A stretch of DNA of 64,000 nucleotides, taken from the NCBI GenBank assembly GCA_030549175.1, contig JAUKUA010000002.1:5518001-5582000 (forward strand), given 5' to 3'. The position numbers and the translations under genes were made by a program. The notes under the pieces are model-generated. The model had not been told where the DNA came from. It saw nothing but the letters and a program-made list of their open reading frames with translations, and searched no databases. Position 1 is the stretch's first letter; every line of letters starts with the position of its first letter. Source of the DNA: Lasiosphaeris hirsuta (Eukaryota; Ascomycota; Sordariomycetes; Sordariales; Lasiosphaeriaceae). This document shows, piece after piece, positions 6,490-25,670 of this stretch.

Positions 6490-7419
6490 CTTCTCTGCTG
6501 TTTGTAGTTTGTATCTGACAGTTGATCCTGGGCTATTATTTTACATAAGAAATCTATCGACCATCCGCGGTCCAACAGTGACAAAGGGTCCCTTTTTTCT
6601 GCCTCGATTCCCGAACTGGGCGGTGAGGTGGGTGGCAGGTGGGTGTTAGCTGGTGTTGTATCCGTACCTAGCTTACGCGGACGATGGGCCGCTGGAGTGC
6701 GGATCAAAGCTGGTTCTGGAACAGACCCGACGGGGGACGGACGGGGGTTGTAAACGGGGGCGGGGGGGAAGGGGGGGGGGGCAAGCCGCAGCCCGTTCAT
6801 CTTGGAAAAAGTGCGGAGCCCGCGGACCCCGCGGGCAACCGAGCCCCTTCCTCCACCTGCCCTGCGCATCTGGGCAGAGCTGGGGGGCAATGCCGAAGGA
6901 ATGAGGGGCCGCCCAGGCAGGTACATGGAAATTTCCTTGTCGCCTTGTCTCCCCGCACCTAGAACCAAGAACACCCGATCTGAACCCGCGTCAGGTTGGT
7001 GCTTCGTCTCAGTGAAGGCGCCCCAATCTTGCAGCATCGCAACACCCTCCACGCAGTGCGCATGGCACCGTTGGCGCCAAGAGTACCACCGACGGCTGGC
7101 CCAAAAAAATAATCCATCCGCGGACCCGTCCACTACCAGATGACGAGGCCCAGAATTTCTCAAATGGGCAACAACCAAATAATTCCTCCGTTCTGACTTT
7201 TATCTGCTGCTCTGCTGACCGCCGGCTCTGTGCGACCATCGCATTCTCCGGAATACTCACTAGACGATTGCGTGTTCATTCTCCTGTTCAGCGCTTTTTC
7301 CTTTGGTCAAAAACGTCACGATTGCGCCCACTACGGAATTTCTTTGAGCAACATGTTGCACCTCGTTTTCCGTTGCGCTTAATTCCTAATTGACCCTAGA
7401 CCTTTCCCCAGGCGAAGTG
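6490..7419. promoter_or_regulatory. Shared divergent promoter of the Zn2Cys6 factor and the ABC exporter
   Basis: No coding sequence is supported here. The region contains four CCGCGG cores: within TCCGCGGT (6564-6571), CCCGCGGA (6819-6826), at 6829-6834, and within TCCGCGGA (7117-7124). It also has a poly-G tract near 6755-6780. Everted CGG triplets are classic binding sites of Zn2Cys6 factors. Confidence 0.6.
7117..7124. promoter_or_regulatory. PDRE-like site TCCGCGGA
   Basis: An exact match to the palindromic pleiotropic drug response element recognised by yeast Pdr1/Pdr3, about 300 bp upstream of the ABC exporter start codon. Seven- or eight-base matches can occur by chance, but three more CCGCGG cores lie in the same promoter. 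Confidence 0.5.
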
Positions 7420-18233: not shown

Positions 18234-18246
18234 AAAGCCCGGCTTC
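18234..18246. repeat. Left target-site duplication of the LINE
   Basis: aaagcccggcttc, identical to 24727-24739. The repeat brackets the two LINE ORFs exactly, as target-primed reverse transcription would leave it. Confidence 0.65.
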
Positions 18247-18409
18247 CACAGCTCTTCCTCCTCTTTTTATTTTTTCGAAAGAAACGGACCAATCACACAC
18301 CTGGGACTTTGCTACCCCAAACACCAAGCCTACATCACAACCTCGTTCGCCTCCGGGCACTCCTCTGCACCCGCTGACAACCTCGCGCACCACCCGCGCG
18401 GCTCCCAAA

Positions 18410-21093
18410 ATGGCGCCCGAGCAACGCCCTCCCAACGCCAACCTCACGAGCTTGTTCTTACAGCTCAAACGCGAACGCGAGGCCGAGCACAATGCGATGT
18501 GTACGGTCTTCGAAGCCATGACCAAGGCCCTCGACCAAGGCCTGAGCCAGATCCCCCCGGGGAAAGCGTACGAGAGGTACGCAAACCCGATCGCGCAAGG
18601 TCTCCAGGAGATCCTGCACAGTCTGGCGATGGGCCAGACCCCCAAAATCCCAGGCTGGGAAGCCCTCCCAAGCCTGACACAAAGCTCGGCCCCATTGGAG
18701 CCAGCACAACACCAACGGGCCACTGAAAGGAGGCCACGCTCGCCAACCCCCCGTCGTGCCACGGCCAACGACGACACACCCAGCGAAGGCACGCCCTCGC
18801 CACCTCCCCCCCGCGCCCGAGCCCTCGGCCCGAGCACCCCCATGTCCAACCAGAAGGCACAAGCCGAATGGGAGACAGTCGTGGCCAAGGGCCACAAGAA
18901 GGTCGGCTGGGCCAGCGTGGCTGCTGGCGCCGCCAATCAAACCAAGTTGGTGGACCTGACCCACACACCAACTCCCAAGGCCGCGGGCAAAACGGCCAAA
19001 ACCCCCCGAGGCCCCAGGAGCCCCAAGCCCCAGCCACAGAGGCTGGTGCTCAAGGCTCCCGAAGGCCACCCATGGAACAAGGCCTCCGCGGGAGAGGTCC
19101 TATAGGGCCTAGGCACCACCCTGGGCGCGATACCAGCAACCGTGCGGCCCACGGTGAAAGGAAACGGATGGACTGTCACCCTAAAGAAGGGTGAAGAAAC
19201 GAGTAAGGCTATCGAGAAGGCCGAGAAGGTAGGCCTCTCCCTGGCAAAGGGCGGAGACTGGGACTCCTACATCGTAGGAAAAGTCCCCGAGAAGGTACCG
19301 ACCCTACGGGGACCGGAGACAGCCGTGACGGAGCTGATGATCCGCCAAGAAGCCGCCGCTACTACGGGGGTCATGCCGGTCAAGGCCGTCAAGACCACCC
19401 ACGGCAGCTGGATCGTGTCATTCGACACAAAACCGAAGACCCCCTTCTTCAGGGTCTTCAACTCGACAATGGCCTGCCATCTGGAGCCAAGACGGAGGGT
19501 CCCCAACTGCATGGGATGCTTCGAATTCCACTGGCAACGGGACTACATGTCTAAGCCTTGCTGTGGGGAATGCGGTAAGCGGGAGGACAGGCACGTGGAC
19601 GGCCACATGTGACCCCCCCAGTGTCCCAACTGCCTAGGACCGTACAAACCGGAACTGTGGTACCTGTGCCCGGCGAGGCCGGTAGTCAAGGATGGCGGCC
19701 TCGTGTTCCTGACGACGGAGTAAAGAAAGGCGACCAAGGTAGCAGGCATGAAGGCCCGGGACCAGTTCAGGCGTATAGCCAGAACTAAGGAGATGCCTAA
19801 GGCAGAACTGCTACGACAGTCGAAGTCTATCACTCCAGTAGACTTAAAGGACACCGAGATCGGCAAAGCCTGGGAGGATGCAAAAGCCCGAGCGGACAAG
19901 GAGGCCATCAAATGGCAGGGCCTCGCTAAGGCGGCGAAAGAAGGTAAGATCGTCCCCCTAAACCTCAACGACCCGGTGAAGGGTATCCAGGTATAGGGAA
20001 CCTACATCACCGGAGGAGAGACCGTCCCTCATACATACTATATAGGCCCCGCCGCCTAGGACGGGAGAAGCCAAACCACCTCCCTCAAGATCTCTCCCCT
20101 ATGAGGCCTCGTAGGTACCCCCCTGGAGTACTTACTACCCAGAGAAGTCGTGGAATCGGTAGAATCCGATATCTACGGCGTAACCCCTCCCCCCCCCCCC
20201 CCGCCACAGGGCCCTACTAAAGCAGACAAGGCCCGAACACCGGAGGAAACTAGGGCGCTGATCCGCCAGTACCAGGTGGACATGGCCCTACTTAAGTACC
20301 TACTCGACAAGGCAACGGAAGTACATAAGCGCTTCGACTACCAGGACGTCCCAACGGCGGACTAGGCCGCGGACATGTTTAGAAAGAGAATTAAGGAGGC
20401 GGAAGCTGTGATCCTCATAACGTATAGAAAGATCTTAGCCGAAGTGGTAGTCCTAGATGTCTGGGGTACGGTAGACGAAATGCTAGGTAAGGAAGCTGGG
20501 GCGTGACTAACAATCCCCCCTATATATACCACAGCGCCCGGGGGTTACGAAGACTAAGTGTTACTCGACGAGACAATGGAAGATGCCGGCCTCGGAGACG
20601 GCTAGTATAAAACAATGTTAGGCCTGGCCCTAGAGGACGTCGCCAACTCAGAGACATAAGGTGACAGGGCCCAGCTCCAAAGAATAAAAGAAGAGCTGAA
20701 AAAGGCGAAGAAACAGTATCCCGAGGAGGCACGGCTAAGGGAAGAAGTCTACAAGGCGTAAGAAGATCTCTTCGTAACCCGGACCGCCATAGGTCCGGAC
20801 GACGGGAATAGCCGAGAATCCTCCTGGGACACGGACCCCTAGGTACAAGCCGAACTCTAACGACTGACGGAAAAGAGGACTATAATAGACCTCACAGGGA
20901 AGTCCGCCTCCCTCCCTCCCCCATCTCCGGCTAGCCTAACCAAACCCGGGCAGCTATACCCCCCTAAGGGAAGGTTGATAGCTAGACGGTCGAACTCCCT
21001 TCCCAGAACGACCTGCCCCGCCTCCCCCTTACTACTAGGCCCCCTGAGGCCGAGTAGGGTAAGGAAGCCCACGGAGAAAGTGTTAAATGCCTA
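18410..21093 (+). pseudogene. LINE ORF1 (gag-like) with RIP-type stops
   Basis: Starts at ATG 18410 (ccaaaATGGC). One frame runs to TAA 21091-21093. It begins with a Lys/Glu-rich helical segment, then Pro/Ser-rich linkers. A Cys/His-rich nucleic-acid-binding region follows at about 19507-19670 (CMGCFEFHW, CCGECGKRE, CPNCLGPY). Downstream are long charged helical stretches, a polyproline run at about 20185-20205 and a further acidic region. In-frame stops include TAG 19103, TGA 19610, TAA 19721 and TAG 19994, with many more beyond 20360. Since the phase never changes, substitutions rather than indels did the damage. ORF1 proteins of this group coat the RNA. Confidence 0.75.
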
Positions 21094-24000
21094 ATACAAC
21101 GCTTAGAATCCTACAAGCTAACATCGCGGGGGTCATGGCTTACCATGACTCCCTCTTGGCGTCGGTAATAGGGGAAAGAGTGGACCTCGTCCTGGTATAA
21201 GAACCATGGTAAGGCTTTGACAGCACCCAGCGTGCCCACGGATACAATATCCACTACCAGGGAGACTCTGCCAGCTCGATAATCTACTTAAGGGCAGGGG
21301 AGTGGGAGTAACTACCAGGGGTAGAAGACGGAGTAGTCGGCGTTACCAATGGCCACCTAAAGGTCTACAGAGTCTATAATAGGGCCGGAAAAGACGTAGT
21401 AGACGGGGTAACCGCCCTTAGGGGGCGAAGGCTTATAATAGTAGGTAACTTTAACCTTAACTACCTCCTGTGGGCTAAGATAGACAAAGGGGGAAGACGA
21501 GGGCCTAGGGCTAGGGCCGTCGTAAGATGGGCCGAAACCTAAGGAACGCTACCTCTTATCACCGAGCCTACCTATAACCTAGGGGGAGTACTAGACCTGG
21601 TGTTTAGTAACGTCGACAGGTTAAAGGCGGAGGTCGCCTCAGACCTCTGGACCGGGTCAGACCATTCTACGATACGTATATGGCGGGAGGGGGTCGCTAG
21701 TGTCCGGAGGTAGCCGAAGTGGATAGTGAAACTACTGGACCGTTGTGTATTCGGCAGAACCCTGGCGGAGCTCGCCCTATCGATACGCCCACTCTCCGTG
21801 AAGCCAGACGGCCCGGAACTAGAGGAGGTAGCCCGTGCCCTTACCAATATCACGGGTACGGCCACGAGGTGCCACGGAACGAAGGTATGGGACGGGCCAA
21901 AGAGAACTAAGTGGTAGAATGCCAGCTACGAGGCTAGTAAACGGTTCTGTATCACGGATGGTACCGAGCTCGGTGCTAGGGTATATAGGTGGACCCTAAG
22001 GAAGGTAAAGACAGAATATTACGAGAAGGTAGTAAGTAGAGCCTCGGAAGACTCTCTGTGGAAGGTCATAGTATGAGGAAAAGAGCCGTAAAGCTAGGCG
22101 ATCCTACCACTCTAACCTAGGGACAGGAGACCGGAGGCTGTCACAACGGAAGATAAGGCAAGGCTAGTCTTTAAAGAATTGGTAGCCTTCGACCCCGGAA
22201 TAGACACCGAGCTAATACCTAGACCCCAGGGGACGCCGCTACTCGACCTAGACCTACGGCCAGAGTTGGAGGAGGTAGACGAAGCGTTCATAGGCAGTAG
22301 GGTAAAAACCACGGTACCAGGACCGGATGAAACCACGACTATAATACTCAGAGCTGCCTAGTAGGACACGAAGGTTAAGAACGACGTCGAGGTGAAGTCC
22401 CGCTCGATGCTGGCAAAGCTGGTCTACGCCATATACGCCCACTCCGTAGCCCTAGGATACTACCCGGACGTGTAGAAGGAGTCGGAAGTAGTGCTACTAC
22501 CCAAACCCAACAAGCCACACGGTACAACGAAACAGCTCCGGCCGATCGCCCTCGTCCTGGCATACGGGAGAGGGTTAGAACGGCTAGTAGTAAGAAAGTT
22601 AAGCTAGGCGGCACTATGGCAGAAGGTCCTTAGTCCTAACTAAGCGGGAGGTATCTCCAAACGCTTGGCCACGGACCTTCTTACCGGGGTAGTCCACGAC
22701 CTCTAGGACGCCATGAGGAACAGGGAGGCGGTGGGAATCTTGACGGGTGACATCGATGGGGGTTTTAATAATGTCCAAAGGGAGTACCTGGCTAATAGAC
22801 TGGTAGTCTAGGGGTAGCCCCCGACCTTCGTGAGGTTTGTAAAGAGCTTCCTGTTAGGTAAGAAGGTAACCCTCAGGCTAGATGGGGTTATACGTCTGAC
22901 AAAGGTAGGCCTACCATAGAACTCGTCACTGTCACCGATCCTCTTCAGCTTGTACCTAGAGCCACTGGCTTAAGGAGAAGGCCGAAGCCTCTACGTAGAC
23001 GACCTCCTCGTAATAACTAAAGGAGACTCCGAAGTAGCGGTAAGGACCAACCTCACGAGGTAGCTGGCGGTAATTAACACCTGGGGAAGGGCAAACAACA
23101 TCTCGCTCGACCTAGCTAAGTACGAGTACACCCTCTTTAAACTATATAGGGCGGCACCGAAAACAGGTAAGGACCCTAACCCCGGTCCCAGCTCCGACTC
23201 AAGCTCAGAAGAGGAACGAACCCCCATCCCACGAAAGTACCCCGTCCTCAAGGTAGGCACGGTATAAGCCCCCTATAACCCACTCCTCAAGTGGCTAGGT
23301 GTGTAGCTCGACCTGGGGCTTCAGTTCAAGGAGCACGTCAGACACGCGGCGGCGAAAGGGGCCAAGGTAACAGCCCTCCTTCGAAGGATCGGCGGCCTAG
23401 GTAGGGGCCTCCCCCTACACCTGGTAGCACGGGGGCTCACGGCGGTGACACTCCCCAGAGTGACATACGCCTCCGAAGCGTAGTGGAATAGTAGGGAAGC
23501 CCCGGTCCGAGGCTTACAACGCGTGCTCAACTCTGGCCTCAAAGCCGTCCTGCCGGCCTACAAGACCACACCTAGGGCGGTCCTCCACGTGGAGGTAGGG
23601 TAAGCCCCGATCCACATGGTCCTTGAGAAGAAGGCCCACGACTACGCGACCAGGGTACTCAATCTCAGGGAGCAAGGGATCAGCCACCCCGTGGTCAGCC
23701 GCCTAGCCCACGTGCCGGGCAGGGGCCAGAGAGCCGGTAGGACCTAGGTGACCTTCCTCGAAATCATGGCAAAGAAGGAAGGCTGGACCCCGCCGGTACT
23801 GCTGGCCGCAGTCAGGAAGCAAGATGGCACCCGGGCCCCGGGCACGTCGTGCGACAATTGCTTCAGGCGACGAGAGAAGTACGATAGGGACTGGGGGAAG
23901 CCAGGACCATGCCGCAGGTGCGCGGCGCGCGGGGCGGAATGTGCCAGGGAGAGGGTGTCTACCAAGACGCCGCGAGGAACGAGGGACGCCCCACCGGGCC

Positions 24001-24467
24001 TGCCGGGGATATACAACCCCACCCAAGAACTCCAGGCCTGGTGGGAGTGCAACAAGCCAAAGTACCGCAATGTCAAGGTCCGGAAGAAACGCCCGCGGGA
24101 GCTCAGGCTCCCAAGGCGGTGGCTGGCGGCCCTCCTCGCCGAAAGAACGGGGCACGGGGACTTTAAGGCATACCATGAAAGGATGGGGCACGATCCGGAA
24201 ACATGGGAAGGCACCTGTAGGAGGTACGGGCTTACCAAGGCTCCGGGACACCTCCTGAAGTGTACACATAGCGCGGCCGCCCTGGCGAAGGCACTGCCGG
24301 CAGGGGTATGGGCACCGAAGCTCCTCACCTCGAGCCCCAAGAAGATGCTGACCGCCTTCGGGGCTTTCATGGCGGCAAAGGAGGAACTAGAAAAGGGTGA
24401 AGAAAATACCCCGGGCAACGAAGAAGAAACGGAGTGGGCGGCGGCCCACGGCCGCGAGGCAGTCTGA
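21087..24467 (+). pseudogene. LINE ORF2: endonuclease, reverse transcriptase and C-terminal Zn2Cys6-like cluster, RIP-stopped
   Basis: ATG 21087 to TGA 24465-24467 in a single frame of 1126 codons plus stop. The N-terminus is an APE-type endonuclease (LRILQANIAGVM; then VDLVLV-stop-EPW-stop-GFD, originally Gln and Gln/Trp). The reverse transcriptase has its active site YVDDLL at about 22992. The thumb region reads KWLGV...LDLGLQFKEHV. The C-terminus (23748-24467), free of stops, has two metal-binding patterns. The first, 23850-23942, has C-x2-C-x6-Y-x9-C-x2-C-x6-C with basic residues RRREK, a GAL4-type cluster whose third Cys codon reads TAC. The second (about 24216-24264) is C-x2-Y-x7-H-x3-C, like the usual LINE zinc knuckle, again with TAC for TGC. 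I found no RNase H motif. Confidence 0.78.
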
Positions 24468-24726
24468 TACGCAAGTGTGCTTTCTTTCCCTCTAGAGGGT
24501 GTTGTTTCCTAAAAGGTGGCTTTTCTCTACGGAGTTTTTATGTACCTTAGCTGGGGGAGAGTTGTGAGGGTGGGTGAGGCCCTCAAACGGCAAACAGGGG
24601 CATGTATTGGGCTAGGTTTTCGGCAGATGGATCTCCTTGCGTTAGTTAGCCGTTGTCGGGGCCCTCGGCCCCGGCACGTCCGAGTCGCCAAGAGCGAAAA
24701 CCCGGGACGTTAAACAAATTCAATTC

Positions 24727-24739
24727 AAAGCCCGGCTTC
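24727..24739. repeat. Right target-site duplication of the LINE
   Basis: aaagcccggcttc, the second copy of the 13 bp repeat at 18234-18246; it sits directly after the A/T-rich 3' end of the LINE. Confidence 0.65.
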
Positions 24740-24825: not shown

Positions 24826-25670
24826 TCAAAACACCTTTGGAATCGGGCTCTTGAGATAGGCCTTCAGCGGCGTCGTCCCATTGAAATCCAAGCCGACGGC
24901 CTGCACAAAGGCCTGCGCCACGAGATCGCCGCCCTCGGGGCTCGTGTGCGTGTGGTCCTTGGGATACAGCGCATTCGTCTTCTCGTTGCCCAGCTTGAGG
25001 TACAGCGCAGCGACGGCCTGGAAGTGGTCGACGAAGCTGGCGCCCTTGCCGACATTCTTGGCCGAGCTCGCAGCGTACGCGACGAAGCGCGAGGCCCCCG
25101 CGCCGTACTTGCCGCCCTCCCACATGTTGTTGGGCGTCTGGCTGCTGACGACGACGCTGGCGCCCTTGGCGATGAAGCTTTTGGCTGCCTTCTCGACGTA
25201 GTAGCTGAACGTGTACACCGTCTCGCCCGTCTTGCCCGACTTGCACGTCTCGCTGCCGCTGCCCGGACAGTCGCTGCGCGCGTTGTCCGACGCCGAGTTG
25301 GGCGACCCCCCGTCGTTGTGGCCGAACTCGATCACGACAATGTCGCCCGACGTCACCAGCTTCTCGATCTCGGCGAAGCGCCCCTCGTTGGTGTAGCTGC
25401 GCGCCGACCGGCCCGAGATGGCCTTGTTCACCACCGGCACTGTGAGGTATTTGCCCAAGTACGGACCCCAGCCTGTGTCTCGTCTCAGATGTTGCCAAGT
25501 TTGCGGCGGCTAGACGTGGACTCACCATCGAGAGGCGCGCTTGTCTTGGCCATGGTGCTGTCTCCCGCGAGGTAGACCGTCGGTGTTGCCCGCTTGACGT
25601 CGGCGGGCCGCGGGCTACCGTGGACACCGGCTGCAAGCGCAGCGACGAGCAATGTGAGTTGGGTCAGCAT
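24826..25670 (-). CDS. Rhamnogalacturonan acetylesterase (CE12, SGNH hydrolase), 263 aa, 2 exons
   Basis: Exons 25670-25526 and 25472-24826 with a 53 bp intron join in frame (792 nt). The signal peptide is MLTQLTLLVAALAAGVHGS. SGNH blocks are all present: TVYLAGDSTMAK (catalytic Ser), the oxyanion block NKAISGRSARSY, EFGHNDGGS (Asn) and YPKDHTHTSPEGG (Asp and His, about residue 220). Four cysteines are available for disulfides. The enzyme removes acetyl groups from the rhamnogalacturonan I backbone of pectin outside the cell, implying plant biomass use. It is intact although it starts only about 100 bp from the dead LINE. The start codon was chosen because the next upstream ATG would precede the signal peptide with polar residues. 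Confidence 0.9.

What the first reader, a model, noticed from the sequence alone, without database searches (positions are those of the whole stretch)
23850..23942. LINE ORF2 ending in a fungal Zn2Cys6-type binuclear cluster
In frame with the reverse transcriptase, 23850-23942 spells C-x2-C-x6-Y-x9-C-x2-C-x6-C with basic residues between the second and third positions. That is exactly GAL4-type spacing if the Tyr codon TAC (23880-23882) was TGC before a RIP-type TpG-to-TpA change. No RNase H domain was recognised, and a LINE-style C/H knuckle follows. A host-type sequence-specific DNA-binding domain on a retrotransposon polymerase could direct integration to particular promoters. I do not know of a described case, but I cannot search.
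Basis: partly seen in the sequence, partly recalled or inferred. Interest (0 to 1): 0.75.

Follow-up and report, generated by a model that had tools for sequence, protein, structure and literature searches.

The report
Jumping gene carrying fungal-type zinc finger
A fungal LINE retrotransposon carries, where its relatives have an RNase H enzyme, a small zinc-binding module of the kind fungi use in gene switches; the module is real and seems to be swapped between elements, but nothing shows that it steers insertion to promoters.

Summary
The window holds a full-length, point-mutated LINE (about 18247-24726, 13-bp target duplication). In the same genome, 7 of 18 copies covering the motif keep all six cysteines; 35 of the 37 changed positions are tyrosine, as expected of TpG-to-TpA mutation. 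Some copies score above Pfam's Zn_clus cut-off, others below or not at all. A second LINE family has a textbook finger (39.6 bits). A low-confidence AlphaFold model matches Leu3, Gal4 and other Zn2Cys6 structures first, though not significantly. The finger lies between reverse transcriptase and CCHC knuckle, where outside relatives have RNase H; no RNase H match lies near a LINE RT in this genome. Finger spacing varies (x6, x7 or x8 between Cys2 and Cys3). Finger and backbone trees conflict, which suggests exchange between subfamilies. Of 39 3' ends of finger-bearing families, 11 abut one site (TCTGCC(G/A)TTTTCAG); of 15 ends of a finger-less family, none do. But elements with different fingers share that site, so the finger's variable part does not choose it. 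DNA docking is likely but unproven; promoter targeting is not supported. Text searches of open PMC papers found no published case.

The parts
18234..18246 (.). 5' target site duplication AAAGCCCGGCTTC
   Evidence: exact 13-bp repeat with 24727-24739
18247..24726 (+). full-length LINE (non-LTR retrotransposon), point-mutated; ends set by the duplication and by homology to other copies
18410..21094 (+). ORF1 (Cys/His-rich by eye), interrupted by stops; its stop codon overlaps the ORF2 start
   Evidence: translation; not profiled
21087..24467 (+). ORF2, 1126 codons with 26 in-frame stops (25 TAA/TAG, 1 TGA)
21114..21674 (+). apurinic-type endonuclease domain (PF14529 22.4 bits and PF03372 21.7 bits, both below cut-off)
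22500..23168 (+). reverse transcriptase (PF00078, 61.5 bits)
23850..23942 (+). Zn2Cys6-type cluster (third Cys is Tyr in this copy), ORF2 residues 922-952
24216..24263 (+). C-terminal CCHC-type knuckle (C-x2-Y-x7-H-x3-C in this copy; second position Cys in L002 and other relatives)
24468..24726 (+). 3' UTR ending GGGACGTTAAACA + ATTCA repeats
24727..24739 (.). 3' target site duplication

Best explanation
This is a degenerate but full-length member of a group of fungal LINEs of the RNase-H-bearing (Tad1/I-type) kind that lack RNase H and carry in its place a host-type Zn2Cys6 cluster. Shown: architecture endonuclease - RT - Zn2Cys6 - CCHC; conservation of the six cysteines; insertions with 12-16-bp duplications and 5' truncation as in target-primed reverse transcription; a preferred insertion site shared by the finger-bearing families. 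Inferred: in the intact protein the cluster binds zinc and holds ORF2 protein on DNA (target or new cDNA) during target-primed reverse transcription. The exact site is probably set mainly by the endonuclease and by pairing of the (AATC)n tail, with the finger as a docking aid that is exchanged between subfamilies.
For: Open frames without stops run from just behind the RT domain through finger and knuckle in L021 (460 aa), L028 and L029. Zn_clus is above cut-off in 3 of the 9 LINE pieces of this genome given to Pfam (L021, L027, L029 family 2) and reaches 39.6 bits in L040's place. PDB profile searches list Pho7, LAC9, LEU3 and GAL4 (E 0.01-0.68), among unrelated weak hits. The first 12 Foldseek rows, and 14 of 17, are Zn2Cys6 proteins (family membership partly recalled). 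Finger flanks are shared by families 1, 2 and the finger-less family 3. Outside relatives have RNase H just before the same tail: P0002, P0009, P0012 by Pfam, P0007 by the source's name, P0010 by eye. Purifying selection within subfamilies: omega 0.06-0.22 in the finger, five pairs. 11 of 39 3' ends at site A against 0 of 15 in family 3.
Against: No binding data. The AlphaFold models are poor (mean pLDDT 46.8 and 47.8), and no Foldseek row is significant (best E 0.57). Two finger groups depart from GAL4 spacing and lose most basic residues between Cys2 and Cys3. 17 of 39 3' ends are at neither site A nor a recognised LINE piece, the window copy among them. Families 1/2 and 3 differ in all of ORF2, so the site contrast cannot be put down to the finger. 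LINEs without RNase H and without a finger exist too (family 3; P0005 by its precomputed Pfam list). Tad1 membership was not tested by a tree.
Confidence: 0.6

Rival explanations
1. The cluster binds RNA or single-stranded cDNA, or only shapes the protein, and has no part in engaging target DNA.
For: It sits near the CCHC knuckle and where RNase H worked on the RNA-DNA hybrid; finger classes with different spacing insert at the same site.
Against: Resemblance is to double-stranded DNA-binding Zn2Cys6 domains, with basic residues between Cys2 and Cys3 kept in three finger types (FRRREK, YKAKTK, HRRKRK).
Confidence: 0.25
2. One reading: the finger directs integration to particular promoters or CGG sites. 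(Overlaps with the best explanation; the confidences are not exclusive.)
For: Insertion is site-preferring (11 of 39), the site has a CCG in 8 of 11 cases and a CGG in one, and the window duplication AAAGCCCGGCTTC has both CCG and CGG.
Against: The common site lies inside a repeated element with inverted ends, not a known promoter. L021 and L040 sites have CCA; the L023 and L036 duplications have no CGG. The x7-x7 finger (L026) and the x6 fingers share the site. The window copy's two nearest long open frames both end towards it; promoters were not mapped.
Confidence: 0.1
3. The endonuclease alone sets the site; the finger is a passenger left by a chance fusion.
For: Same site with different fingers; finger dN between subfamilies 0.58-0.76 against 0.07-0.21 elsewhere, apart from 1b-1c at 0.15-0.18.
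Against: Six cysteines kept in at least one copy of every finger class and in a second family; low omega within subfamilies.
Confidence: 0.12
4. Chance cysteine pattern, or a host transcription-factor exon beside a LINE fragment.
For: The window match alone is below Pfam's cut-off.
Against: Repeated in many copies and two families, in one frame with the tail and knuckle.
Confidence: 0.03

Closest known systems
Tad1/I-group LINEs with RNase H (here P0002, P0007, P0009)
   Same: in P0002 endonuclease and RT, in all three the C-terminal tail RLPR..LLAxRTGHGDF..H and CCHC knuckle; RNase H is reported for Tad1 and related clades (PMC4640811, passages read)
   Different: RNase H absent; a Zn2Cys6 cluster in its place
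Fungal Zn2Cys6 (GAL4/LEU3/Pho7) DNA-binding domain, PF00172
   Same: six Cys, CxxC pairs, basic residues between Cys2 and Cys3; LEU3-like x9 linker in classes I and III, short x5 linker in family 2 (spacing of LEU3 and GAL4 recalled)
   Different: inside a retrotransposon polymerase protein; class II has x7/x8 between Cys2 and Cys3; no dimerisation coil sought
Site-specific LINEs with DNA-binding fingers (Utopia: N-terminal zinc fingers, PMC4640811 passages; R2 zinc finger/Myb, recalled)
   Same: finger in the polymerase protein, site-preferring insertion
   Different: finger type, position after RT, APE-type endonuclease rather than restriction-like
Jockey-superfamily ORF1 domain shuffling including PHD domains (PMC4120745, abstract read)
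   Same: zinc module exchanged between LINEs
   Different: there in ORF1; that abstract calls ORF2 evolution tree-like, here the exchanged part is in ORF2

Membership tests
Zn2Cys6 binuclear cluster (PF00172) | profile score over gathering cut-off 21 | tested here: met
   met by L021 23.2, L027 23.1, L029 family 2 24.9 bits and the L040 place 39.6; not met by the window copy (18.5, 15.1), L024 (10.3), L025 first (20.0), L029 1d (17.8); L028 and L025 second had no match
Zn2Cys6 binuclear cluster (PF00172) | six Cys with x2-x6-x5..12-x2-x6..8 spacing (recalled) | tested here: met
   met by classes I, III and family 2; not met (x7 or x8) in L005-L007, L009, L015, L019
Zn2Cys6 binuclear cluster (PF00172) | fold | tested here: inconclusive
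   low-confidence model; 14 of 17 Foldseek rows within E 10 are Zn2Cys6 proteins, none significant
Zn2Cys6 binuclear cluster (PF00172) | zinc and CGG-triplet DNA binding | not testable with these tools
   needs bench work
Tad1/I-type LINE | APE-type endonuclease and RT in one ORF, no LTR, duplications, 5' truncation | tested here: met
   (endonuclease hits below cut-off in the mutated window copy)
Tad1/I-type LINE | RNase H after RT | tested here: not met
   none in ORF2; 4 PF00075 matches genome-wide, none within 5 kb of any of the 142 RT matches listed (compared by eye; 150 of 155 RT candidates scored); a strongly decayed RNase H could be missed
Tad1/I-type LINE | RT phylogeny | not tested
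   no reference set held; the clade name rests on tail similarity to P0002/P0009 and recall
Site-specific LINE | most insertions in one target | tested here: not met
   11 of 39 at site A, 11 at another LINE piece, 17 elsewhere: a preference, not strict specificity

The most novel reading that the evidence does not exclude
A LINE lineage traded its RNase H for a host transcription-factor-type DNA-binding cluster, which now acts as a replaceable docking cassette swapped between elements by recombination, with new finger types tuning where or how ORF2 protein engages DNA.
Probability: 0.3. Interest if true: 0.8.

Novelty: new variant of a known kind. Interest (0 to 1): 0.6.

Why it matters
At least in the Jockey superfamily, LINE ORF2 is described as constrained and tree-like (PMC4120745, abstract). 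A host-type DNA-binding cluster in the RNase H slot, exchanged between elements, would show how retrotransposons gain new ways to engage DNA, and would give an open system in which to test DNA docking in target-primed reverse transcription.

Tried and rejected
CGG rule: duplicated or abutting sites were listed, but triplets are not constant. Outside relatives with the finger: three protein searches (searches scored only the roughly 8000 candidates sharing most words) gave 17 proteins, and none shows a finger. P0006 (167 aa, family-2-like tail) starts too close to the tail to tell. P0002, P0009 and P0012 have RNase H before the tail by Pfam, P0007 by name, P0010 and P0018 by eye. P0003 and P0004 have RNase H in the precomputed list; P0005 has neither. 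The rest (P0008, P0011, P0013-P0017) are too short. Structure: both AlphaFold jobs were poor. One-strand RIP, which I noted early, is not supported: against L021 the window shows both C-to-T (110, 65 of them before A) and G-to-A (88, 37 of them after T) in 21087-23747. My first by-eye sorting of the 39 3' ends (11 site A, 10 LINE, 18 other) was replaced by a scripted one (11, 11, 17), which adds L024 (a weak match, about 90 bases on) and L048 to the LINE class and drops L022, whose 3'-end scrap is seen only by eye. Literature: no paper for non-LTR retrotransposon + Zn2Cys6, Zn clus + RVT, or six terms. The listings (20 of 109 shown; 20 of 32; 2 of 2; 8 of 8; 12 of 1461) held nothing relevant in titles and abstract starts; those papers were not opened, except PMC4640811 (passages), PMC4120745 (outline and abstract) and PMC10799480 (passages). 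PMC10799480 reports RVT_1 among host-TE fusions; PF00172 does not occur in its main text, and supplements could not be read.

Full report
What was checked. Window 23850-23942 is C-x2-C-x6-Y-x9-C-x2-C-x6-C, with TAC at 23880-23882. ORF2 runs 21087-24467 with 26 stops. Pfam finds RT (61.5 bits), endonuclease just below cut-off and Zn_clus at 15.1 bits in the whole frame, 18.5 in the 239-aa piece. The element is full length, with the 13-bp duplication AAAGCCCGGCTTC at 18234-18246 and 24727-24739. TpA excess and the base changes against copy L021 (110 C-to-T, 65 of them before A; 88 G-to-A, 37 of them after T, in 21087-23747) fit RIP.

Relatives. The window's own genome (44.4 Mb, 14 contigs, a fungus not named) gave 93 matches to the C-terminal 239 aa. 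Twenty loci were cut; 18 cover the finger (L017 and L020 do not). Cys positions: 71 Cys, 35 Tyr, 1 Gly, 1 Ser of 108; 7 of 18 copies have all six. Three finger classes appear: I, CDNCFRRREKCDRDWGEPGPCRRCAARGAEC (L002; L001, L003, L004 near it; L012-L014, L016 and L018 decayed); II, CDQCFRS... with x7-x7 (L005-L007) or x8-x7 (L009, L015, L019); III, CDGCYKAKTKC... (L008, L010, L011). A second LINE family has CDRCHRRKRKCKGELPCERCVEGGHDC in L040, with close copies in L029 and L041, at 39.6 bits against PF00172. A third family (L039, 601-aa open frame) has RT and tail, and neither finger nor RNase H. Outside proteins have RNase H before the same tail: P0002, P0009 and P0012 by Pfam, P0007 by its source's name, P0010 by eye. 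The finger thus sits in the RNase H slot. Whether it was gained by families 1 and 2 or lost by family 3 is open.

Is it a Zn2Cys6 domain? Of the nine LINE pieces from this genome given to Pfam, three pass the cut-off, four match below it and two do not match; both non-matching pieces and the weakest (10.3 bits) are class II. Profile searches of PDB sequences give Pho7, LAC9, LEU3 and GAL4 (E 0.01-0.68), mixed with unrelated weak hits (macro domain, cytochrome). The model of the L021 tail has low confidence (finger blocks 58-71 pLDDT), yet Foldseek's first 12 rows are all Zn2Cys6 DNA-binding domains, at E 0.57-1.8. I take identity as very likely for class I, class III and family 2, and likely by descent for class II.

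Exchange. Between subfamilies 1a and 1b, transversion-only identity is 95% outside the finger and 61% inside it (L002-L005). Purine/pyrimidine-coded trees disagree: the backbone groups 1a with 1b (support 99), the finger groups 1b with 1c (support 94). Finger dN between subfamilies is 0.58-0.76, except 1b-1c at 0.15-0.18, against 0.07-0.21 outside; finger dS between subfamilies is high or saturated. Within subfamilies omega in the finger is 0.06-0.22 (five pairs). The finger alignment is 93 sites and includes decayed copies, so exchange is supported, not proven.

Insertion sites. The pattern CNGGACGTTAAACA marks 39 3' ends of families 1 and 2 (control 2, so one or two may be chance). Sorted by script, 11 run into TCTGCC(G/A)TTTTCAG or a near variant (site A), 11 into another LINE piece, 17 elsewhere, the window copy among these. 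The family-2 copies of L029, L040 and L041 start right after this site at different truncation points; L040 shows it on both sides as a duplication, and in L029 the site stands before the family-2 copy and after the second LINE behind it. Site A occurs at 69 places with up to 2 mismatches (control 4) and lies in a repeated element with inverted ends. For family 3 I took 15 of the 20 places matching its 3' end (L039 plus 14 fetched); five 3-mismatch places were left out as probably chance, and the control gave 11. None of the 15 is at site A, 2 run into a LINE piece. Fisher tests: p 0.024 (11 of 39 against 0 of 15) and 0.008 (LINE-abutting ends dropped, 11 of 28 against 0 of 13); these are uncorrected and confounded with lineage. 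Subfamilies 1a, 1b, 1d and family 2, with three finger spacings (x6-x9, x7-x7, x6-x5), all use site A, so the variable part of the finger does not choose it. CCG is present in 8 of 11 site A sequences, CGG in one and CCA in two.

Mechanism. Shown: architecture, cysteine conservation, duplications of the target, site preference. Inferred: zinc binding, DNA docking, endonuclease-led site choice, and (AATC)n tails favouring insertion behind earlier copies. Promoter targeting is not supported.

Novelty. No paper listed or 75 was seen to describe this; most were seen as listings only, the library is open PMC papers, and repeat databases were not searched. I file it as a new variant of a known kind.

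Noticed in passing
L025, L027, L029, L035, L023, L044, L048, L068, L069: LINE copies stand head to tail: a second (often 5'-truncated, sometimes 5'-complete) element begins in or just behind the (AATC)n or ATTCA tail of another, even of another family.
   Followed up: partly
L029:3812-3855 and L029:494-651; L027 near 6689-6734 and from 8693 on: Repeated element with inverted ends (GAGAGCGTCACGGTGCACTACC...) that hosts site A; 69 site-A-like places genome-wide at up to 2 mismatches.
   Followed up: partly
L033, L050, L059, L060: Second shared downstream sequence (like CAACGAAGGTTCGTGATGCCAC) at four LINE 3' ends (by eye).
   Followed up: no
window 21080-21094: ORF1 stop and ORF2 start overlap (ATG at 21087, TAA at 21092-21094), suggesting coupled translation (by eye).
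   Followed up: no
window 24826-25509: A minus-strand open frame ending about 100 bases past the LINE 3' end looks like a secreted GDSL/acetylesterase-type enzyme (recalled from its sequence).
   Followed up: no
G000 C13 (957 kb) and C14 (844 kb): Small contigs hold many decayed LINE copies and may be accessory chromosomes.
   Followed up: no
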